From positions 1-42,438 of the forward strand of contig CABYIF010000011.1 in NCBI GenBank assembly GCA_902518985.1: a DNA stretch of 42,438 nucleotides. The letters are read 5' to 3'. Under the pieces are notes generated by a model. That model had not been told where the DNA came from. It worked only from the letters and a program-made list of their open reading frames with translations, and made no database searches. Positions within the stretch are counted from its first letter, which is position 1. The number at the start of each line of letters is the position of its first letter. The translations under genes and the position numbers were made by a program. Of the stretch, positions 14,971 to 24,682 are shown piece by piece. The stretch is from an uncultured Alphaproteobacteria bacterium. Its GTDB lineage: Bacteria; Pseudomonadota; Alphaproteobacteria; HIMB59; GCA-002718135.

Positions 14971-16065
14971 CTAAATAAAATGACTCAAAAAGATAATTCC
15001 AATATAGCTTACAAAACCAACACAAATTGCTGCTGAGAAACCCACATAAAATGGCCTTACACCTAAGCTTCTTAATGATACTAAGTTTGTACTTAAACCA
15101 ATTGCGGCCATAGCTACTGCTAAAGAGAACTCAGCTAATAATTTTATATAGTTAATTATTGATTGCCATTGATCAATCAAAAATACCCCAAAGGCATGAT
15201 CAGAACTTTGAATACCCCAGTCACCAATTGACCTGATAAATCCCATGATTATGAAACCAATAATGAATATGGGAAACATTGATAGTATTGATGGTTGGGT
15301 ATTTTTTTTATCTATATTTTTTTTTAAGTATAAGTAACTAATAAATGGAATTACAATTATCATACTAACATTCCTTACAAGTTTTGTAACTGTTGCTATA
15401 TCCATAGTGGTAGGAGAGTTGTATTGCTCTGAATAAATTAATCCCGCACCAGCTACTTGCGCAGTTTCATGAATTGATGTACCCAAAAATAATCCTATAG
15501 AAAGTTCATCACCATTAAATAAATAATGTGCTATAAATGGATAAATAAACATAGCTATAATTCCAAATATGGTAATGTTGGCAATTGCATATGTAACTTC
15601 TTCTTTATCGGCGTTAATTGCCGGGCTTGTTGCAACTATAGCTGAAGCACCACATATACTTGTACCAACGGCAATTAGAGAACCTATTTTTGAAGAAACT
15701 TTTAAAAACTTACAAAGATAATTAACAATTAAAATAGAAATAATAATACAAGCTATAATTAAGGGAATACCAATAATTCCTACTTTCAAAATATCCAAAA
15801 GCCCCAATCTAATCCCAAGGCAAATTATTCCTAATCTAAGAATAAATTTAAGAGAAAATTTTATTCCTTCAGAGAACATTGAAGGAATTTTAAAAATATT
15901 TCCAATCAACAGGCCTATTATTATTGAGAGCATAATTGGAGAAATTGGGCTTTTACTTAAATTTAATATTTCATTACCAATAAAGCCGCTTAAATATATT
16001 CCAGCGTATGCGATTATGAAACTAAAAAAAATACCTGGAAAAATTCTATATATTGTAAAATGCAT
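14971..16065 (-). CDS. YeiH-family putative sulfate/sulfite exporter
   Basis: A 364-residue membrane protein with about ten helices belonging to the YeiH / Cons_hypoth698 (PF03601) family, often annotated as putative sulfate exporter. Typical stretches are the GTSICGASAIVATSPAI segment near 132-148, FLGTSIHETAQVAGAG near 193-208, and the C-terminal AMAAIGLSTNLVSLRSLGVRP segment. Function is known only by annotation tradition and weak evidence. It lies in the minus-strand run between the TauE/SafE gene and mobA, with 45 bp to mobA. Start is an ATG with no strong ribosome site. Confidence 0.88.
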   Translation of the reverse strand: MHFTIYRIFPGIFFSFIIAYAGIYLSGFIGNEILNLSKSPISPIMLSIIIGLLIGNIFKIPSMFSEGIKFSLKFILRLGIICLGIRLGLLDILKVGIIGIPLIIACIIISILIVNYLCKFLKVSSKIGSLIAVGTSICGASAIVATSPAINADKEEVTYAIANITIFGIIAMFIYPFIAHYLFNGDELSIGLFLGTSIHETAQVAGAGLIYSEQYNSPTTMDIATVTKLVRNVSMIIVIPFISYLYLKKNIDKKNTQPSILSMFPIFIIGFIIMGFIRSIGDWGIQSSDHAFGVFLIDQWQSIINYIKLLAEFSLAVAMAAIGLSTNLVSLRSLGVRPFYVGFSAAICVGFVSYIGIIFLSHFI

Positions 16066-16110: not shown

Positions 16111-16722
16111 TTAAATATTTATTTTCTTAGCACTATTTAAATCTTCTTTAGTGTTTATATTAAAAAAATTATTTTCTTGTTCGTCATCAAATTCTACAAA
16201 CTTATATCTATGCTTTTTTACCCAGAGCATAATTTTACTATTATTTGATATTAATTCGTTTTCTAAGCTTTTTAAAAGAGATACACGCCACATTGCAATA
16301 ACTGGATGATGTCTTTGATTTGATCTCGCTATGAATATATCTTTATCTGATGAATATGATAATAAAAATACATCAAGTAAATTATTTGGTAAAAAAGGTG
16401 TATCGCTTGGTACAGTAAATATCCATTCTTTTTCATTATTATAGTTTTTTTTTGCCCATAACATTGAGGCATGAATACCTGCCAAAGGACCGAGGAAACC
16501 TTCAATTTGATCTTTAACTACTGGATAATTTAAATTTCTAAATTCATCTAAATTATTTGCATTTATAATTATGTCACTACTAAAATTACTCAATGTTTTT
16601 ATAATTTGATTTAATATTGTTGTACCACTGATTTTAGTAAAAGTTTTAAACCCTCCGCCAAACCTTTTCGATTGACCTCCTGCTAAAATTGCAAATAAAA
16701 TCTTTTTTTTAACTATACTCAA
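16111..16722 (-). CDS. mobA: Molybdenum cofactor guanylyltransferase
   Basis: Transfers GMP from GTP to the molybdenum cofactor to give the bis-MGD form used by DMSO-reductase-family enzymes such as formate dehydrogenase. The GTP-binding signature LAGGQSKRFGGG near 14-25, the EGFLGPLAGI segment and the VPSDTPFL motif are typical. Length 203 is normal. The start is a TTG supported by AGGAG about 9 bases upstream inside the fdhD 3' end; the genes overlap by 14 bases. It sits between fdhD and the YeiH-type gene, and together with mobB and moeA supplies the cofactor for the nearby fdsA product. Confidence 0.94.
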   Translation of the reverse strand: MSIVKKKILFAILAGGQSKRFGGGFKTFTKISGTTILNQIIKTLSNFSSDIIINANNLDEFRNLNYPVVKDQIEGFLGPLAGIHASMLWAKKNYNNEKEWIFTVPSDTPFLPNNLLDVFLLSYSSDKDIFIARSNQRHHPVIAMWRVSLLKSLENELISNNSKIMLWVKKHRYKFVEFDDEQENNFFNINTKEDLNSAKKINI

Positions 16723-17527
16723 TTCTTTTTTCTCCTGAAAGGACTAAATATTTTTTTCCTTTTGCTCTTCCAATTAATGTGAGGTTAGATTCTTTTGCCA
16801 ACTCTACACCCCAAGCTGTAAAACCAGATCTAGATATTAAAATAGGTATTCTCATTTTAATAGTTTTAATAACCATCTCACTAGTAAGTCTACCTGTTGT
16901 ATAGAATATTTTATTTGATGAATTTATTTTTTTTAAAAACATATATCCAGCAATTTTATCTACAGCATTATGTCTGCCAACATCCTCCATATATATTAAT
17001 GGTTTATTATTTTGAATAATAGCACAGCCATGAATTGCACCTGCTTCTAAGTATAGACTTGGAGTTAAAGTAATTTTTTTTGAAATTTCATAAATCCATT
17101 TATGTTTTATTTTCTTATTTGTTTTTATTTTAGTTTTTTTTATTTCATCATATATATCACCAAAAATTGTACCTATCGCACAACCGCTAGTTGTAATTTT
17201 TTTTTTTAATTTATTTTCATAATTAGTTTTTCGTTTTGTCCTTACAACTACAACATTTAATTCTTTATCTATTTCTACTCTTCTAATTTTATCACTTTTT
17301 TTTAACATATTTTGATTGAGTAAATATCCAATTGCAAGATATTTTGGATGATCGCCTATGGACATTAGGGTAACTATTTCCTGATTATTTAAAAATATTG
17401 TAAGAGATTTTTCGTTTATTACTTTTGATTTAATTCTTTTGCCAGTTTCATCTATACCTTTTAGCACAGTTATAAGGGATTTATCTTTAATATTGGGTGA
17501 TACTAAATATTTCTCTTTTTTTTTCAT
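16709..17527 (-). CDS. fdhD: Formate dehydrogenase accessory sulfurtransferase FdhD (FdsC-like)
   Basis: FdhD hands a sulfur atom from a cysteine desulfurase to the bis-MGD cofactor, giving the sulfido ligand needed for formate dehydrogenase activity. Characteristic motifs are EDVGRHNAVDK (181-191), TGRLTSEMVIK near 216 and SRSGFTAWGVELA near 233. The conserved cysteine region reads SGCAIGT with Cys 116 only; the second Cys of the CxxC pair known from E. coli FdhD is absent, as in some other family branches. Length 272 is normal. It is divergent from the TupB-like gene by only 26 bp and overlaps mobA. Confidence 0.94.
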   Translation of the reverse strand: MKKKEKYLVSPNIKDKSLITVLKGIDETGKRIKSKVINEKSLTIFLNNQEIVTLMSIGDHPKYLAIGYLLNQNMLKKSDKIRRVEIDKELNVVVVRTKRKTNYENKLKKKITTSGCAIGTIFGDIYDEIKKTKIKTNKKIKHKWIYEISKKITLTPSLYLEAGAIHGCAIIQNNKPLIYMEDVGRHNAVDKIAGYMFLKKINSSNKIFYTTGRLTSEMVIKTIKMRIPILISRSGFTAWGVELAKESNLTLIGRAKGKKYLVLSGEKRIEYS

Positions 17528-17553
17528 ATGTAGTAAATAAACTAATATCTTAT

Positions 17554-18246
17554 ATGAACATATTAGAAATTTTTATAAATTCTATACAATTAATCATTTC
17601 ATTTGACTCAGAATTATGGGACATAATAATTTTATCCTTATTTGTGAGCTTTACAGCTCTTGTTGTGGCTTCAATTTTGGGTTTTTTTATAGGTTATTAC
17701 TTAGCACTTTATAATTTTTTTCTAAAAAGAATTTTACTAGTTTTATTAAATTCATTAATGGGTATCCCACCAGTAGTTGTAGGTTTAATTGTGTATTTTA
17801 TTTTTGCTTCAGGAGGACCTTTGGGAGTTCTACAATTGTTGTATACACCCTCTGCTATGATCATTGCTCAAACAATCATAATATTCCCAATTGTTGTTTC
17901 TTTATCTCATGAAATATTTGCAAAGAATTGGTTTGAATTCAAAGATCAGATAAGATCTTTAAATATTCCTTTTTTGGGTTCGGCTAAACTTTTATTTAAT
18001 CATAGTTATTTTTTATTAATAACAACATTATTATCAGCATTTGGGAGAGCTATTTCTGAAGTGGGTGCTGTTATGATTGTAGGGGGTAATATTGATCACT
18101 ATACACGAGTAATGACAACGGCCATTTCTCTTGAAACTAGGATGGGTAATTTAGAATATGCCATGGCTTTGGGACTGGTTCTTATATTAATAACAATAAT
18201 TATTTATTCTTGTGTATATTTGTTAAATAATAGATCAATTAAATGA
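17554..18246 (+). CDS. tupB: ABC transporter permease, tungstate/molybdate TupB-like
   Basis: Integral membrane permease with about five to six helices and the ABC-permease cytoplasmic loop carrying GRAISEVGAVMIVGG, followed by TRVMTTAISLETRMG, a combination typical of TupB/WtpB-type tungstate and molybdate permeases. From the ATG chosen here it has 230 residues, the usual family length; a GTG 57 bases earlier would add 19 residues and reach into fdhD, and is less likely. No ATP-binding or substrate-binding partner gene lies within the window. It overlaps mobB by an ATGA, so the permease belongs to the cofactor operon. Choice of tungstate or molybdate as substrate is not decided by the sequence. 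Confidence 0.88.
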   Translation: MNILEIFINSIQLIISFDSELWDIIILSLFVSFTALVVASILGFFIGYYLALYNFFLKRILLVLLNSLMGIPPVVVGLIVYFIFASGGPLGVLQLLYTPSAMIIAQTIIIFPIVVSLSHEIFAKNWFEFKDQIRSLNIPFLGSAKLLFNHSYFLLITTLLSAFGRAISEVGAVMIVGGNIDHYTRVMTTAISLETRMGNLEYAMALGLVLILITIIIYSCVYLLNNRSIK

Positions 18247-18725
18247 AAATTATTGGCATAGTTGGATGGAAAAATTCAGGTAAAACATATTTTGCCAGTA
18301 AAATTATTAAAAAATTAAAAATTAAAAATTATCGTGTCGCATCAATAAAACATGCCCACCATGAATTCGATATTGATTACAAAAATACAGATAGTTTTAT
18401 TCATCGAGAGTCAGGATCTTCTCAAGTAATAGTTAGCTCATCAAAAAGATGGGTAAAAATTACTGAGCTTAACAATTCTGAGGAGTTAAGTTTACAAGAC
18501 TTAATAAATCAATTAAGTGAAACTGATATTGTGATAGTAGAAGGATTTAAGAACGAAGATCATCCAAAAATTGAAATAATTAAAAATGCTAGTAACAATT
18601 ATTTATTTAAAAAAATTTCAAATATAAAGGCAATTATTTCAGATGAAAAAATTAGTACTAATTTAAAACAATTTAAAAAAAATGATATTGATAATATCGT
18701 TAATTATATTTTAGAACACATGTAA
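18243..18725 (+). CDS. mobB: Molybdopterin-guanine dinucleotide biosynthesis protein MobB
   Basis: GTP-binding partner of MobA that aids MGD synthesis. The P-loop GWKNSGKT (8-15) is followed by SIKHAHHEFDIDYKNTDSF, the MobB-type segment with its HxxHH-like cluster, and a DIVIVEGFKNEDHPKIEI stretch near 97. At 160 residues it is a normal stand-alone MobB. It overlaps the permease gene by 4 bases and moeA by one base (TAATG), so the three are translationally linked. Confidence 0.95.
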   Translation: MKIIGIVGWKNSGKTYFASKIIKKLKIKNYRVASIKHAHHEFDIDYKNTDSFIHRESGSSQVIVSSSKRWVKITELNNSEELSLQDLINQLSETDIVIVEGFKNEDHPKIEIIKNASNNYLFKKISNIKAIISDEKISTNLKQFKKNDIDNIVNYILEHM

Positions 18726-19939
18726 TGAATAAATCACCACTTACAAAAAAACAAATAATTGAAATTTTTAAGAAACAAGAAAATGTAGTTGTAAAGTCAG
18801 AATTAGTAAATTTAGAGAATTCTTTGGGAAGATTTTTATATGATGATTTAAAGAGCAAAGTAAATTTACCTCCATTTAATAATTCTGCTGTTGATGGTTA
18901 CGCATTATTAAAAAAAGATTTAAATAAAAAAACACTCTTCTATTGTAACAGTAGAATAGCTGCTGGGGATAAAAAAAATATTAAAATAAAATCAGGTGAG
19001 GTAGTAAGGGTATTTACAGGGGCCAAAATGCCCTCAAATTCCTCAACAATAGTTATGCAAGAAAATACATTAGTAAATGATAAAAAAGTTGAAATTTTAA
19101 AAGTTCCGCTCTTGGGTGAAAATTACAGACTAAAAGGTGAAGACATTAAAAAGAATCAAAAAATTTTAACAAAAGGGTCAAAAATAAATCAACAAAATAT
19201 CAATTTAATAGCTGCTTCAGGTATTAGAAAAGTTAAAGTATATAGAAAAATAAAAATTGGTTTTTTTACAAGTGGTAATGAATTACGCAAACCAACTAAA
19301 AATTTAAAAAATTCAGAAATTAACAATTCAAATTTTTTTGCACTAAATTCATTATTAGATCAAAAATTTATTTCAAAAAAATATTTTGGAAATCTCAAAG
19401 ATAACTTAAAAATTGTAAAAAATAATTTATTACGTGCTTCAAAAAACAACGATATTATTATTACTGCTGGAGGCGCTTCAGTAGGTGAGGAGGATCATTT
19501 GATCGATGCATTATCATACTTAGGTGATATATTTTTTTGGAGGGCAGCAATAAAACCAGGTAGACCTATTGCAATAGGAAAAATTAATAATTGTTATGTT
19601 ATTTGTTTACCTGGCAATCCTGTATCTGTGCAATTATTATATGCAATGTTAATTAACCCATTGGTAGTAAAACTGTCAGGAGGAAAATTTAGATTACCAA
19701 ATTCAAAAAAGATTGTTGCTAATTTTAGCATGAAGAAAAAAACCCAAAGAATGGAATGGCTAAGAATAATTAAAAAAACAATAAATAATCAAGATTTGGC
19801 TTATAAATACCCAAAGCAAGGATCTGGCATGATTAGCTCTGTTTCATACTCGGATGGCATTATAGAGATTGGGGAAGACGTTTCTGAGATTAAAAAAGGT
19901 GATATATTTGATTTCTATGATTTCGAGACTCTTTTTTAA
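18725..19939 (+). CDS. moeA: Molybdopterin molybdenumtransferase MoeA
   Basis: Inserts molybdate into adenylated molybdopterin. Conserved stretches are present in order: NSAVDGYAL near 51, GEVVRVFTGAKMP near 92, the MoaB-like domain with TAGGASVGEEDH near 243, the KPGRPIAIG segment near 277 and CLPGNPVSV near 292. Length 404 is normal. It ends the tupB-mobB-moeA set; its stop codon overlaps the stop of the convergent tusA gene by 4 bases. Confidence 0.96.
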   Translation: MNKSPLTKKQIIEIFKKQENVVVKSELVNLENSLGRFLYDDLKSKVNLPPFNNSAVDGYALLKKDLNKKTLFYCNSRIAAGDKKNIKIKSGEVVRVFTGAKMPSNSSTIVMQENTLVNDKKVEILKVPLLGENYRLKGEDIKKNQKILTKGSKINQQNINLIAASGIRKVKVYRKIKIGFFTSGNELRKPTKNLKNSEINNSNFFALNSLLDQKFISKKYFGNLKDNLKIVKNNLLRASKNNDIIITAGGASVGEEDHLIDALSYLGDIFFWRAAIKPGRPIAIGKINNCYVICLPGNPVSVQLLYAMLINPLVVKLSGGKFRLPNSKKIVANFSMKKKTQRMEWLRIIKKTINNQDLAYKYPKQGSGMISSVSYSDGIIEIGEDVSEIKKGDIFDFYDFETLF

Positions 19940-20187
19940 ATTTGTTTCTTAAATTTATAACGAATTATAATTTTTTCACTATCTTTGGTACAATCTAAAT
20001 ATTCAAATTTTGATTGTTTGCAATAATGCTCAAAATCTGCCTCTGCTAGAGGATCTGTTGCTATAACTTTAATTACAATATCATTTGTTAGTTCCGAGGC
20101 TAGTCTTCTAGCTTTTAGGACAGGGATAGGACATTCTGTACCACTGGTATCAAGTACTATTTCTTCATTTTCAATTAAATCTTTCAT
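19936..20187 (-). CDS. tusA: TusA-family sulfur carrier protein
   Basis: Small persulfide carrier of 83 residues. The active-site motif CPIP has its Cys at position 19, followed by the family's helix VLKARRL and the DPLAEADFEHYC stretch. TusA proteins relay sulfur from cysteine desulfurases to tRNA thiolation, to sulfur oxidation systems and, in some bacteria, toward molybdenum cofactor enzymes. It lies head to head with the formate dehydrogenase genes across a 45-bp AT-rich gap and tail to tail with moeA, which suggests a role in sulfur supply to FdhD and FdsA; that role is an inference from context. Confidence 0.93.
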   Translation of the reverse strand: MKDLIENEEIVLDTSGTECPIPVLKARRLASELTNDIVIKVIATDPLAEADFEHYCKQSKFEYLDCTKDSEKIIIRYKFKKQI

Positions 20188-20232
20188 GACTTTCTGTTAC
20201 TTAATATATATTATAAAAAATGGAACGCTAGA
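20188..20232. promoter_or_regulatory. Divergent promoter space tusA / fdsGB
   Basis: A 45-bp gap between divergent starts, rich in TATA-like hexamers (TATATT, TATAAA). It is the only non-coding DNA upstream of both the formate dehydrogenase genes and tusA, so at least the -10 elements of one or both promoters should lie here. No clear operator repeat is visible. Confidence 0.45.
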
Positions 20233-21936
20233 ATGGATAAATTTGTTTCTCAAACAGAAACTTCTCTAAAAAAAAAGAAGAGAAGATGGTCGCCTAAAGG
20301 AAGACAAGTTGATGATAATTACTTAAATGAGGTCTCCAAACTATTTATTGGAACGAAATTTAAACGTGATGAACTGATTGAATATTTACATATATTGCAA
20401 GACAACTTTGGAGTCTTATTTGATAAGCATCTCGTAGCCCTGTCAATTTTAACAAATTTACCACTTACTGAAATTTATGAAGTAGCAACATTCTATGCAC
20501 ATTTTAACATAGTAAAAAATAGTGAAAATTATAATCCCATCAAAGTTGTAAGAGTGTGTGAAAGTTTGACATGTGAGCTGTTTGGTGCACATAAGTTACT
20601 TAAAGATCTAAAAAATTTACAAGATCAAAACATTAAAGTTGTGCCTGGTCCATGTATGGGAAGATGTCAGGTTGCTCCTACAGTATGTGTTGGTAAAAAT
20701 TATGTCGATAGAGCTAATCTAACAGATGTAAAAAAGACAATAGAAGATAAAAAATTTGATCCAATTATTCCAAAATACATAGATCTTAATGAATACAAAA
20801 AAAAAGGTGGTTATTCAGTTTCTGCTAAGATTAAAAATGAGGAAATTACTAAAAAAGAAATATTGTATGCATTAAATGAAAGTGGCTTAAAGGGTAAGGG
20901 AGGTGCTGGTTTTCCTACTGGAAAAAAATGGGAAATTGTCTCCAGCTACAAAGGTCAAAAATTTGTTGCTGTAAATGGTGATGAAGGTGAGCCAGGTACT
21001 TTCAAAGATAGGTCATATCTTGAGAGAGATCCGCATAGATTTTTGGAAGGGGCATTAATTGCATCTAGTTTCATTAATGCTGATAAAGTATATATTTATA
21101 TGAGGGATGAATATCCAGCGGTTATTAAAATTTTAAATGATGAAATAATGAAATTAGAAAAAGAATATATAATTCCTAAAAATCATTTCATAGTTAGAAG
21201 AGGAGCTGGCGCATATATTTGTGGTGAAGAATCTGCAATGATTGAAAGTATTGAAGGCAAACGAGGCCTTCCAAGACATAGACCGCCTTATGTTGCGGAA
21301 ATAGGGTTATTTGGACGCCCAACATTAACTAATAATTTGGAAACACTATACTGGATCAGAGATATAATTGAAAAAGGACCAAAATGGTTTGCCAATCAGG
21401 GTTATAGTGGAAAAAAAGGTTTTCATAGTTTTTCAGTTTCTGGCCATGTAAAAACGCCAGGAGTAAAAGTCGCACCTGCAGGAATTACAATCCAAGAGTT
21501 AATTGATAATTATTGTGATGGTATGGAAGAAGGACATGTATTCAAGGGATATCTTCCTGGTGGAGCTTCAGGTGGAATTTTACCTGCCTCAATGAATAAT
21601 ATTCCCTTAGATTATGGTTCCAAAGAATTAACTGAAGCCGGATGTTTTCTTGGATCTGCAGCAATAGTTGTTTTATCTGATAAAGATAATATTAAGGATG
21701 TGGCACTAAATTTACTTAGATTTTTTGAGGAAGAAAGTTGTGGTCAATGTACACCATGCAGGGCTGGAACTGAAAAAACAGTTAAACTTATGAGAGAAAA
21801 AAATTGGAATAAAGAAAAGTTAGCAGATTTATCACAAGTTATGTCTCAAGCTTCAATTTGTGGATTAGGCCAAGCTGCAACTAATCCACTGAACTCGGTT
21901 CTTAAATATTTTGACAACGAGATTACGTATGAGTGA
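20233..21936 (+). CDS. fdsB: NAD-dependent formate dehydrogenase, fused gamma-beta subunit (FdsG-FdsB, NuoE-NuoF like)
   Basis: Diaphorase part of a soluble NAD-linked formate dehydrogenase, passing electrons from iron-sulfur centres through FMN to NAD+. Residues 1-150 form a NuoE-like [2Fe-2S] thioredoxin fold with ligands Cys 109, 114, 141 and 145. The rest is NuoF-like: FMN/NADH site GLKGKGGAGFPTG near 218, NGDEGEPGTFKDR near 248, and a [4Fe-4S] site with Cys 503, 506, 509 and 543. In Rhodobacter- and Cupriavidus-type enzymes gamma and beta are separate genes; here they are one 567-residue chain with a linker near 160-195. The 3' end overlaps fdsA by 8 bases. Electron bifurcation cannot be judged from sequence. 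Confidence 0.94.
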   Translation: MDKFVSQTETSLKKKKRRWSPKGRQVDDNYLNEVSKLFIGTKFKRDELIEYLHILQDNFGVLFDKHLVALSILTNLPLTEIYEVATFYAHFNIVKNSENYNPIKVVRVCESLTCELFGAHKLLKDLKNLQDQNIKVVPGPCMGRCQVAPTVCVGKNYVDRANLTDVKKTIEDKKFDPIIPKYIDLNEYKKKGGYSVSAKIKNEEITKKEILYALNESGLKGKGGAGFPTGKKWEIVSSYKGQKFVAVNGDEGEPGTFKDRSYLERDPHRFLEGALIASSFINADKVYIYMRDEYPAVIKILNDEIMKLEKEYIIPKNHFIVRRGAGAYICGEESAMIESIEGKRGLPRHRPPYVAEIGLFGRPTLTNNLETLYWIRDIIEKGPKWFANQGYSGKKGFHSFSVSGHVKTPGVKVAPAGITIQELIDNYCDGMEEGHVFKGYLPGGASGGILPASMNNIPLDYGSKELTEAGCFLGSAAIVVLSDKDNIKDVALNLLRFFEEESCGQCTPCRAGTEKTVKLMREKNWNKEKLADLSQVMSQASICGLGQAATNPLNSVLKYFDNEITYE

Positions 21937-24682
21937 AAATAAAATTAAGTTTTATTTAAACAATAAAAAGGTTGAAGCCAATCAAGAAGAAACAATTTGG
22001 CAGGTTGCAAATAGACTAGGAACTGAAATACCACATTTATGTTATGCTAATAAACCAGGTTACAGAGCAGATGGAAATTGCAGAGCCTGTATGGTTGAAA
22101 TTGAGGGTGAAAGGGTACTTGCAGCATCTTGTATTAGAAAACCAACTAATGAAATGAGGGTAAATACATCTTCAGAAAAGGCAAAAAAGTCAAGAGAACT
22201 TGTTTTTGAATTACTATTGTCAGATCAACCGGAGAGAAATATTGCTCATGATGATCAGTCTAAATTTTGGAATTGGATTGACAAAGTAGAAGTAAAAGAA
22301 AGCAGGTTTCCTAAAAAAACACCATGTCAATCTGATACATCACACCCAAGTATGGCTGTAAACTTAGACGCATGCATTCAGTGTAACCTATGTGTAAGAG
22401 CTTGTAGGGAAGTTCAAGTTAATGATGTTATTGGAATGGCTTATAGAGGGGAAAATTCTAAAATTGTTTTTGATTTTGATGATCCGATGGGAGACAGTAC
22501 ATGCGTTGCTTGTGGAGAATGTGTTCAAGCTTGCCCAACAGGAGCTCTTATGCCTGCTTCAGTTGTTGATAAACATGGTATTGGGCATAGTAATGTAGAT
22601 AAAAAAGTTAATAGTATTTGCCCATATTGTGGTGTTGGATGTCAAATTGAATACAATGTTAAAGATAATAAAATTAAATATGTTAATGGAATTGATGGAC
22701 CAGCAAATAAGAATAGACTTTGTGTTAAGGGAAGATTTGGTTTCGATTATGTAAATAATCCAGAAAGGTTAACAAAACCATTAATTAGAATCAAAGATAA
22801 AAAGAAAGATCTACATCCTAGTATTAATTTTGCAAATATTCATGAATATTTCAGAGAAGTTTCTTGGGAGGAGGCAATTAATTATGCAGCAGAGGGTTTT
22901 TTAGAATTAAAGAAAAAAAGAAATGGGAAAAGCAATCTAGCTGGCTTTGGATCAGCTAAGTGCTCAAATGAAGAGGCCTATTTATTTCAAAAGCTCATAA
23001 GAACTGGTTTTAACACAAACAATGTTGATCATTGTACTCGACTTTGTCATGCTTCATCGGTAGCTGCATTGTTAGAAACGATTGGCTCAGGTGCTGTTAC
23101 AGCTCCTTTTTATGAAGTTGAACATTCTGATGTAATAATCGTAATTGGTGCTAACCCTACTGAAAATCATCCAGTCGCAGCAACTTTTTTTAAAAATGCA
23201 GCTAAAAAAGGATCAAAGCTTATTGTTATGGATCCTCGTGGCCATGCATTAAAAAAACACGCAACTCATATGTTACAGTTCAAGCCAGGTTCTGATGTGG
23301 CGTTACTTAATGCAATTATGAATGTAATTATTGAAGAAAATTTATTTAACACTGAATATATAAAAAAACAAACTGAAGGTTTTGACAAACTAAAAAAACA
23401 TTTAAAAAATTACTCTCCTGATATTATGGAAAACGAAACAGGTATTCCTGCTGATCTAATAAGGGAGGTCGCGCGTTTATATGCTAATACCGATAAAGGT
23501 ATAATTTTTTGGGGAATGGGAGTTTCACAACATGTACATGGTACAGATAATGCAAGATGTTTAATTTCATTAGCTTTAATGACTGGAAATGTTGGAAAAA
23601 GAGGTGCTGGCTTACATCCATTAAGAGGACAAAACAATGTTCAAGGCGCCTCTGACGCAGGATTAATACCAATGATGTATCCAGATTATCAGCTGGTAGA
23701 AAAAAATAATAATAAAGATTTTTTTGAAAAATTTTGGAATACTCCATTAGACGATAAAAAAGGCTTAACTGTAGTCGAAATAATGGATGCAATACATGAA
23801 AAAACAATAAAGGGAATGTATATTCTTGGAGAAAATCCAGCAATGTCAGATCCTGACCTTAATCATGCTAGGGAAGCATTACAAATGTTAGACCATTTAG
23901 TAGTTCAAGATATTTTTCTTACTGAAACAGCAACTTATGCCGATGTTATTTTCCCAGCTTCTGCATGGCCTGAAAAAAATGGAACCGCAACAAATACAAA
24001 TAGACAAGTACAAATGGGAAGAAAAGCTATTGACGCGCCTGGGTATGCCAAAGAAGATTGGTGGATTACTAATGAGTTAGGAAAAAAAATGGGTTTAGAT
24101 TGGAATTATAATCATCCAAAAGATATTTATGATGAAATGGCCTTAACAATGCCCTCATTAAATAATATTTCTTGGGATAGGCTTAATAATGAAAATTCAG
24201 TTACATACCCAAGTAAATCACCAACAACTCCTGGAGAAGAAATAGTTTTTGGTGATAAATTTCCAAATGCAACTGGTAAAGGTAAGTTTGTTCCAGCAAG
24301 TGTGACATCACCAAACGAAGTCCCCGATAGGGATTTTGAGATGATTTTAACCACAGGAAGACAATTAGAGCACTGGCATACAGGAGCAATGACAAGAAAG
24401 GCATCAAATCTTGATGCTATTGAACCAGAACCATCAGTGTCTATTTCACCAAGTGATATATTAAAAAATGATATGAAACCTGGTGACAAAATAAAAGTCT
24501 CAACAAGAAGAGGGTCACTAAATATAAGAATTAGACAAGACAGAGCAATTCCTGAGGGCGTTATATTTATACCTTTTTGTTACAACGAAGCTGCGGCAAA
24601 TCTTTTAACCAATCCAGCATTAGATCCTTATGGGAAAATTCCTGAATTTAAATATTGTGCTGCAAAAATTGAGAAGTTATAA
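21929..24682 (+). CDS. fdsA: Formate dehydrogenase catalytic alpha subunit FdsA
   Basis: Catalytic subunit oxidising formate to CO2 at a bis-MGD molybdenum (or tungsten) centre. Domains in order: N-terminal [2Fe-2S] ferredoxin (Cys 38, 51, 54, 68), a NuoG-like linker, two [4Fe-4S] clusters (Cys 149/152/155/159 and Cys 192/195/198/202), then the molybdopterin domain with its own [4Fe-4S] (Cys 231, 234, 238, 265). The metal-ligand Cys 373 lies in RLCHASS, next to His 374, so this is a cysteine rather than selenocysteine enzyme. A C-terminal dinucleotide-binding domain follows. The ATG chosen, giving 917 residues, overlaps the fused fdsG-fdsB gene by 8 bases; a TTG 18 bases earlier is less likely. 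No FdsD-like delta subunit gene follows. Confidence 0.95.
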   Translation: MSENKIKFYLNNKKVEANQEETIWQVANRLGTEIPHLCYANKPGYRADGNCRACMVEIEGERVLAASCIRKPTNEMRVNTSSEKAKKSRELVFELLLSDQPERNIAHDDQSKFWNWIDKVEVKESRFPKKTPCQSDTSHPSMAVNLDACIQCNLCVRACREVQVNDVIGMAYRGENSKIVFDFDDPMGDSTCVACGECVQACPTGALMPASVVDKHGIGHSNVDKKVNSICPYCGVGCQIEYNVKDNKIKYVNGIDGPANKNRLCVKGRFGFDYVNNPERLTKPLIRIKDKKKDLHPSINFANIHEYFREVSWEEAINYAAEGFLELKKKRNGKSNLAGFGSAKCSNEEAYLFQKLIRTGFNTNNVDHCTRLCHASSVAALLETIGSGAVTAPFYEVEHSDVIIVIGANPTENHPVAATFFKNAAKKGSKLIVMDPRGHALKKHATHMLQFKPGSDVALLNAIMNVIIEENLFNTEYIKKQTEGFDKLKKHLKNYSPDIMENETGIPADLIREVARLYANTDKGIIFWGMGVSQHVHGTDNARCLISLALMTGNVGKRGAGLHPLRGQNNVQGASDAGLIPMMYPDYQLVEKNNNKDFFEKFWNTPLDDKKGLTVVEIMDAIHEKTIKGMYILGENPAMSDPDLNHAREALQMLDHLVVQDIFLTETATYADVIFPASAWPEKNGTATNTNRQVQMGRKAIDAPGYAKEDWWITNELGKKMGLDWNYNHPKDIYDEMALTMPSLNNISWDRLNNENSVTYPSKSPTTPGEEIVFGDKFPNATGKGKFVPASVTSPNEVPDRDFEMILTTGRQLEHWHTGAMTRKASNLDAIEPEPSVSISPSDILKNDMKPGDKIKVSTRRGSLNIRIRQDRAIPEGVIFIPFCYNEAAANLLTNPALDPYGKIPEFKYCAAKIEKL

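What the first reader, a model, noticed from the sequence alone, without database searches (positions are those of the whole stretch)
16111..24682. Compact formate dehydrogenase module that includes a TusA sulfur carrier
fdhD, mobA, a TupB-like permease, mobB, moeA, tusA, fused fdsG-fdsB and fdsA lie within 8.6 kb. tusA shares a 45-bp divergent space with the formate dehydrogenase genes and a stop overlap with moeA. FdhD is known to deliver sulfur from a cysteine desulfurase to the cofactor; the placement suggests this TusA is the dedicated relay between desulfurase and FdhD. That step is my inference.
Basis: partly seen in the sequence, partly recalled or inferred. Interest (0 to 1): 0.55.

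Follow-up and report, generated by a model that had tools for sequence, protein, structure and literature searches.

The report
Sulfur carrier in tungsten-type formate dehydrogenase module
A compact marine-bacterial gene block for a probable tungsten formate dehydrogenase carries the only TusA sulfur carrier found in the genome, and two relatives with a metal-free enzyme at that site still keep TusA beside the metal-insertion gene, which points to cofactor synthesis in general rather than to the FdhD helper alone.

Summary
In detail: mobA, fdhD, a TupB-like permease, mobB, moeA, tusA, fused fdsG-fdsB and fdsA fill 16111-24682, with the stated 45-bp gap and stop overlap. The enzyme is nearest to tungsten FDH1 of Methylorubrum extorquens, not FdsGBA. 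The tusA-FDH link is not unique: in 150 genomes of the order, 110 of 110 same-contig tusA/fdsA pairs are divergent and close, and no assembled genome shows a second TusA.

In G082 and G084 the locus lacks fdsGB, fdsA, fdhD, mobA and mobB and holds a metal-free NAD formate dehydrogenase; tusA, moeA and tupB stay intact. Both genomes keep a Mo hydroxylase (xanthine dehydrogenase in G082). In another family tusA abuts mobB-moeA, away from fdhD. Eleven class genomes have FdhD without detected TusA.

Best explanation: a Mo/W-cofactor sulfur carrier feeding molybdopterin synthesis, as TusA does in E. coli, where that role needs no TusBCDE (TusBCD was not found here either). The sulfur donor is open: only a SufS-type desulfurase was strong, yet E. 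coli TusA does not bind SufS. A further hand-off to FdhD is not excluded.

The parts
16111..16722 (-). mobA, molybdenum cofactor guanylyltransferase (203 aa)
   Evidence: TIGR02665 161.6 bits over cut-off 151.85; PF12804
16709..17527 (-). fdhD, bis-MGD sulfurtransferase/chaperone (272 aa), motif SGCAIG: first Cys of CXXC present, second replaced by Gly
   Evidence: PF02634 246.2 bits, TIGR00129 over cut-off; sequence, motif alignment of relatives
17497..18246 (+). TupB-like tungstate/molybdate ABC permease (listed from a GTG; a later ATG is likelier by inspection)
   Evidence: NF038017 213 bits; NF041773 TupB 144 bits, below its 320 cut-off
18243..18725 (+). mobB (160 aa)
   Evidence: TIGR00176 150.2 bits over cut-off 76.2
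18725..19939 (+). moeA, Mo/W insertase (404 aa); only PF03453 match in the own genome
19936..20187 (-). tusA sulfur carrier (83 aa), catalytic Cys19 in ECPIP (codon 20131-20133)
   Evidence: PF01206 50.9 bits; aligned to E. coli TusA 1dcj/3lvj
20188..20232 (.). 45-bp divergent spacer between tusA and fdsGB
20233..21936 (+). fused FdsG-FdsB, FDH1-type beta subunit (567 aa)
   Evidence: PF01257, PF01512, PF10589 in one ORF
21911..24682 (+). FDH alpha subunit (listed 923 aa from a TTG; ATG near 21929 likelier, since many relatives' matches begin at residues 5-7)
   Evidence: TIGR01591 768 bits; 7vw6 W-FDH1 1339 bits

Best explanation
The block is an FDH1-type, probably tungsten-using, NAD formate dehydrogenase with its metal-cofactor maturation genes. 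TusA is the sulfur carrier of cofactor synthesis: it takes persulfide sulfur from a cysteine desulfurase on Cys19 and passes it to the MoaD step that makes the molybdopterin dithiolene. [quoted passage not shown] TusA thus serves every Mo/W enzyme of the cell (FDH, and xanthine dehydrogenase where present). Shown: gene identities, conserved linkage, no second TusA found, TusBCD not found, tusA and moeA intact where the FDH, FdhD, MobA and MobB genes are missing from the locus. Inferred: direction of sulfur flow, MoaD as acceptor, tungsten as metal, and the donor (a SufS-type desulfurase is the strongest candidate present, but see evidence against).
For: Conserved tusA-FDH linkage, 110 of 110 same-contig pairs. 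G082/G084: fdsGB, fdsA, fdhD, mobA, mobB absent from the locus, NAD-FDH there instead; tusA, moeA, tupB intact; dN/dS 0.015/0.089 (tusA) and 0.019/0.131 (moeA), in the range of the kept neighbours yeiH 0.017/0.116 and tupB 0.019/0.125. Both keep a PF02738 Mo hydroxylase, xanthine dehydrogenase in own genome and G082; G084 keeps MoaE. tusA divergent from mobB-moeA with no FDH or fdhD match near in G279 and G380. DsrE family in 2 of 28 genomes only. E. coli: IscS and TusA feed MoaD (PMC5372717, passages), and tusA but not tusBCD/tusE is needed for Mo enzymes (PMC3831636, passages). M. extorquens precedent for moeA1-mobB-tupBCA with FDH1 (PMC13197769).
Against: In E. coli TusA does not bind SufS (PMC11446229, passage) and sufS is not needed for Mo enzymes (PMC3831636, passage), so a SufS donor would be a departure. 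tusA abuts FDH, moeA or mobB genes, and the own-genome MoaE locus, of which part was scanned, showed no tusA. In family f2 (10 genomes tested) no PF02738 enzyme was found, so there TusA could be FDH-only. moaD and moeB were not searched for. fdhD/mobA/mobB elsewhere in G082/G084 was not tested, and both are 79% complete. MoaE was not found in G082. tusA dN/dS rests on 83 codons without a significance test.
Confidence: 0.53

Rival explanations
1. One reading: this TusA is the dedicated relay between the cysteine desulfurase and FdhD, for the terminal sulfido ligand of FDH.
For: Strict tusA-FDH linkage in the order and the same divergent tusA/fdsGB layout in two other families (G205, G349). FdhD here lacks the second Cys of CXXC, so an extra carrier is conceivable. 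No PF02738 enzyme in 10 of 10 f2 genomes tested.
Against: tusA outlives fdhD at the locus in G082/G084; the CxxG FdhD also occurs with fused FDH that has no tusA nearby (9 such loci); 11 class genomes have FdhD without detected TusA; E. coli FdhD is thought to take sulfur from IscS itself (PMC6239281, passages).
Confidence: 0.2
2. TusA has a general role (tRNA 2-thiolation or housekeeping sulfur traffic) and its place beside FDH is incidental or only co-regulated.
For: It is the only TusA found; among the 42 class genomes G150-G191, all 5 FdhD-lacking genomes over 2 Mb still have TusA (read by hand).
Against: DsrE family absent in 26 of 28 genomes; linkage conserved in two families and seen again elsewhere; among G150-G191, TusA goes with FdhD (21/22 against 8/20), though genome size confounds this.
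Confidence: 0.14
3. TusA steers desulfurase activity (competition with Fe-S assembly) when the Fe-S-rich FDH is made, rather than carrying sulfur to the cofactor.
For: E. coli TusA competes for IscS and shifts Fe-S supply (PMC5372717, PMC11446229, passages).
Against: tusA stays with moeA after the Fe-S-rich FDH is gone from the locus.
Confidence: 0.08

Closest known systems
Methylorubrum extorquens FDH1 and its W-specific maturation genes (moeA1-mobB-tupBCA, fdhD, mobA; PMC13197769)
   Same: Alpha subunit nearest by sequence (7vw6/8j83); heterodimer, like the fused beta subunit here; mobB-moeA with a Tup-type permease
   Different: Here enzyme, fdhD, mobA, mobB, moeA, permease and tusA sit in 8.6 kb; tusA is added; family f1 genomes show one MoeA match each where M. 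extorquens has five; the paper has no occurrence of 'tusA' (listing)
E. coli IscS-TusA-MoaD branch of molybdopterin synthesis (PMC3831636, PMC5372717)
   Same: TusA family, catalytic Cys19 aligned, link to Mo-cofactor genes, no need for TusBCDE
   Different: No IscS-type protein among the desulfurases classified here; SufS-type is the strongest; tusA sits beside FDH and moeA
Rhodobacter capsulatus fdsGBACD operon (PMC6239281)
   Same: NAD-linked FDH with its own FdhD-type chaperone
   Different: Separate FdsG and FdsB; FdhD beside such operons in the class sample has CXXC, here CXXG; no tusA in the fetched flanks of the 17 such loci
AEGEAN-169/HIMB59 clade genomics (PMC10308909)
   Same: Reports a tungsten transporter and proposes W-FDH in this clade (assigning the window to it is my inference)
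   Different: No occurrence of 'tusa' or 'molybd' in the main text

Membership tests
TusA (PF01206) | Family profile over curated cut-off | tested here: met
   50.9 bits vs 28.6
TusA (PF01206) | Conserved Cys in CPxP aligned with E. coli Cys19 | tested here: met
   Alignment to 1dcj/3lvj
TusA equivalog NF001423 | Score over NCBIfam cut-off | tested here: not met
   40.8 vs 78 bits
TusA of the tRNA TusBCDE relay | TusBCD (DsrE family) partners in the genome | tested here: not met
   PF02635: none in the own genome; 2 of 28 genomes at 23-24 bits, just over the 22.7 cut-off. TusE not searched
FDH1-type W formate dehydrogenase | Alpha subunit nearest to FDH1, with fused FdsG-FdsB beta subunit | tested here: met
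   7vw6 1339 bits vs 6tg9 565; fusion; the two types split at a branch with SH-aLRT 100, quick tree
FDH1-type W formate dehydrogenase | Tungsten in the active site | not testable with these tools
   Metal content needs the protein
FdhD with CXXC motif | Both cysteines of CXXC | tested here: not met
   Window FdhD reads CAIG; CxxG in 19 of 19 fused-type loci; CxxC in 17 of 17 separate-type loci, 15 by pattern and 2 read by eye in the output
Sulfur relay to FdhD | TusA-FdhD contact or transfer | not testable with these tools
   Complexes cannot be folded here
Metal-free NAD formate dehydrogenase (gene at the G082/G084 site) | D-2-hydroxyacid dehydrogenase family and nearest solved chains are NAD-FDH | tested here: met
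   PF02826 164.7 bits; 2go1 663 and 2nac 657 bits

The most novel reading that the evidence does not exclude
In these streamlined marine bacteria TusA has shed its tRNA role and become a Mo/W-cofactor-only sulfur carrier fed by SufS rather than IscS, supplying both the dithiolene step and, through a single-cysteine FdhD, the terminal sulfido ligand.
Probability: 0.2. Interest if true: 0.65.

Novelty: new variant of a known kind. Interest (0 to 1): 0.45.

Why it matters
The source of sulfur for tungsten/molybdenum FDH outside E. coli is open: the PLoS One 2018 paper says the desulfurase for R. capsulatus is unidentified and that organisms without CXXC may differ (PMC6239281, passages). Here is a lineage in which the carrier is tied to the enzyme by position, with no second copy and no TusBCD partner found, plus two natural replacements of the enzyme that separate 'FdhD helper' from 'cofactor carrier'. 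One deletion can decide it. If the donor proves to be SufS, that would differ from E. coli, where TusA does not bind SufS (PMC11446229, passage).

Tried and rejected
Co-occurrence of tusA and fdsA over the order (Fisher p 9e-11) was rejected as evidence: of 19 genomes with neither gene I checked 16 for the neighbouring EF-Tu gene (E <= 1e-150); 14 lack it too and 2 have it near a contig end, so the region is mostly unassembled rather than lost. Of 12 fdsA-only genomes, in 11 the expected tusA position lies off or at the very end of the contig (read from coordinates and contig lengths) and one (G131) is rearranged with a truncated fdsA; of 7 tusA-only genomes, 5 are contig ends and 2 (G082, G084) are real.

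The broken-looking tusA of G008 and G099 differs from relatives in the length of an A-run, taken as sequencing or slippage. G106 is cut by the contig end.

TusA trees: too few columns. Order TusAs form one clade; whether they join the G205/G349 TusAs is unresolved (AU p 0.33), or those plus G279/G380 (p 0.07; that set was named after seeing the loci). One long row (L124) was left out.

FDH tree: the first script failed at the display step; rerun by the quick method without the mixture model. tusA-linked FDHs are not one clade within the fused type, so one ancestral linkage against repeated gain is open. 'Fused' was called where no separate FdsG match was found, not by inspecting each protein.

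Promoter scan: 46 sites against 55.7 expected, nothing to use.

The class count rests on capped lists: 8 of the 155 FdhD genomes were not listed (4 more are of the order), and several fetched contigs end within a few kb of fdhD. The 11 genomes with FdhD and no TusA include incomplete ones (G303 79%, G247 84%).

Full report
OBSERVATION. tusA (19936-20187, minus strand) overlaps the end of moeA by 4 bp and is 45 bp from the fused fdsG-fdsB. It is the only PF01206 match in the own genome, 54 contigs and 70% complete.

WHAT THE ENZYME IS. The alpha subunit matches the tungsten FDH1 chains 7vw6, 8j83 and 7e5z at 1339 bits; chain 6tg9 (R. capsulatus FdsA by recall) scores 565. The beta subunit is one fused protein; FDH1 is a heterodimer (PMC13197769, outline). 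In a quick tree of 43 FDH alpha chains, 26 rows with no separate FdsG match split from 17 rows with one at a branch of SH-aLRT 100. The same 2026 paper shows that moeA1, mobB and fdhD are needed for FDH1 in M. extorquens and that moeA1-mobB-tupBCA form a cluster (outline, passages and discussion read). The window block is therefore best named an FDH1 module with its W/Mo maturation genes. The metal itself was not tested.

CONSERVATION IN THE ORDER. Of 150 genomes, 119 have TusA, 124 have fdsA, 112 have both. On one contig: 110, all divergent and close; in 2 the genes lie on different contigs. No genome shows a second TusA; double rows in G008 and G099 are pieces of one gene. In the f2 genome G002 a LysR gene lies between tusA and fdsGB. 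No TupB match was found in the f2 loci mapped, nor in G003 of f1. Real exceptions are three: G082, G084 and the rearranged G131. Shared absence is mostly an assembly gap, because the neighbouring EF-Tu gene is missing too.

THE NATURAL REPLACEMENT. In G082 and G084 the site holds tauE, yeiH, tupB, moeA and tusA, but fdhD, mobA, mobB, fdsGB and fdsA are gone from it; a 398-aa NAD formate dehydrogenase of the D-2-hydroxyacid dehydrogenase family lies beyond tusA. No fdsA match exists in either genome at E <= 1e-100; both are 79% complete. The 80 best of 192 loci with this enzyme were kept; the other 78 are 83-90% identical, mostly labelled Pelagibacteraceae, and carry no tusA in the fetched flanks. 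In the order the enzyme occurs in 9 of 150 genomes; G056, G102, G137, G057 and G089 also have fdsA, and G095 has fdsGB with fdsA cut by the contig end, which looks like an intermediate state. Between G082 and G084, dN/dS values are 0.015/0.089 (tusA), 0.019/0.131 (moeA), 0.019/0.125 (tupB), 0.017/0.116 (yeiH), 0.013/0.175 (tauE), 0.016/0.378 (NAD-FDH): all look constrained, though tusA has only 83 codons and no test was made. So here tusA goes with moeA, not with fdhD.

OTHER MO ENZYMES. A PF02738 Mo hydroxylase is found in 15 of 29 genomes tested: 15 of 19 in family f1, including own genome, G082 and G084, and 0 of 10 in family f2. In own genome and G082 it is xanthine dehydrogenase, both subunits over the NCBIfam cut-offs, in a purine-degradation cluster with XdhC; the G084 one was not classified. 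MoaE is present in 14 of 16 genomes, among them own genome and G084, not G082 or G007. A cell without this FDH thus still needs molybdopterin and a metal insertase, but (from general knowledge) not bis-MGD or FdhD for xanthine dehydrogenase. Other Mo-enzyme families were not searched for.

SULFUR SOURCE. PF00266 matches in 16 of 16 genomes. Own genome's strongest is SufS-type (TIGR01979 471.9 bits, just under its 475.1 cut-off), next to a SUF-associated gene (TIGR02945 132.7 bits, under its 143.4 cut-off); a second kind, classified on the G001 copy, is VC1184-type desulfurase-like (302 bits, under 352). Only these two proteins were classified; neither is IscS-type. Against SufS as donor: E. 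coli TusA does not bind SufS (PMC11446229, passage), and sufS and csdA are not needed for Mo enzymes there (PMC3831636, passage). The donor is therefore open. The DsrE family, which holds TusB/C/D, is absent in own genome and just over the cut-off in 2 of 28. This fits a Mo role: in E. coli, tusBCD and tusE deletions leave Mo-dependent activities intact while tusA loss does not (PMC3831636, passage). TusE and MnmA were not searched for.

THE CLASS. Of 289 genomes, 182 have TusA and 155 FdhD. Of 143 listed FdhD genomes outside the order, 2 (G205, G349) have TusA within 15 kb of fdhD, 69 do not by listed position, 11 show no TusA, and 61 were opened by fetching the fdhD region: no TusA there, with several regions short because contigs end. 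G205 and G349 show the same divergent tusA/fdsGB layout, followed by fdsA, fdhD, mobA, mobB and moeA. Among the 30 best-scoring class TusA loci, two (G279, G380, one family) have tusA divergent from mobB-moeA, with no FDH or fdhD match within about 9 kb; in both, fdhD lies beside mobA elsewhere. A third (G150) lies near an ORF matching the FDH alpha profile, not identified further. TusA thus clusters with different parts of the cofactor path.

FDHD. With fused-type FDH, FdhD has CxxG in 19 of 19 loci; with separate FdsG/B it has CxxC in 17 of 17 (two of the 17 were missed by the pattern and read by eye). The PLoS One 2018 paper lists other CXXC variants (CC, only second Cys, CXXXCXC, none) but not this one in the passages read, and finds the cysteines non-essential in its assays (PMC6239281). 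CxxG also occurs in 9 fused-type loci without tusA nearby, so it does not by itself call for TusA.

READING. Its second refutation (grouping with tRNA TusA and no second copy) could not be judged: no second copy was found, but the tree is too weak and the tRNA partners are missing. The stronger claim, a dedicated FdhD relay, is not supported by the replacement genomes. E. coli work makes TusA the sulfur carrier to MoaD (PMC3831636, PMC5372717; passages); that accounts for linkage to FDH1, to mobB-moeA, and for survival after FDH replacement. I put 0.53 on this and 0.2 on the FdhD relay. In family f2, where no PF02738 enzyme was seen, TusA may in practice serve FDH alone.

IN PRINT. Full-text searches for TusA with formate dehydrogenase and FdhD, with gene neighborhood, with FDH1/M. 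extorquens and with fdhD/fdsA gave no listing that names a tusA-FDH linkage; most hits were judged from listings only. The library lacks many subscription papers, so absence is weak. The AEGEAN-169/HIMB59 paper notes a tungsten transporter and suggests W-FDH (PMC10308909, passages).

Noticed in passing
L076:10829-12025, L077:10965-12161: Metal-free NAD formate dehydrogenase sits where the FDH1 genes are in relatives; 83-90% identical copies occur in records mostly labelled Pelagibacteraceae, and five order genomes carry both enzyme types.
   Followed up: partly
window:16709-17527 and 118 aligned FdhD sequences: FdhD with CxxG goes with fused FDH1-type enzymes (19 of 19 loci), CxxC with separate FdsG/FdsB types (17 of 17); this 'first cysteine only' form was not among the variants in the paper passages read.
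   Followed up: partly
window:20131-20136: Glu precedes the catalytic Cys of TusA in 35 of 35 distinct order sequences and in none of 32 others.
   Followed up: no
window:13990-14904 and 14971-16065: A TauE/SafE-family exporter is on the mobA side of the module in both families; a YeiH-like gene lies between in some genomes of the genus (G001, G082, G084) but not in G127.
   Followed up: no
L062:9103-9984: A LysR regulator lies between tusA and fdsGB in the f2 genome G002, divergent from tusA.
   Followed up: no
L245:16276-17848: Many f2 genomes have a second, about 380-aa MoeA paralogue, next to moaC, trpC and lexA matches in G014.
   Followed up: no
L072:9437-12566: In G131 fdsA lacks its first ~262 residues and unrelated ORFs (sugar-catabolic by eye) abut it; rearrangement or assembly fault.
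   Followed up: no
L081:8674-8875, L243:6560-6860: tusA of G008 and G099 is frame-broken in an A-run.
   Followed up: yes
L248: Record AG-337-I02 is titled Pelagibacteraceae although its contig is the order's G082 with this order's module: probable label error.
   Followed up: no
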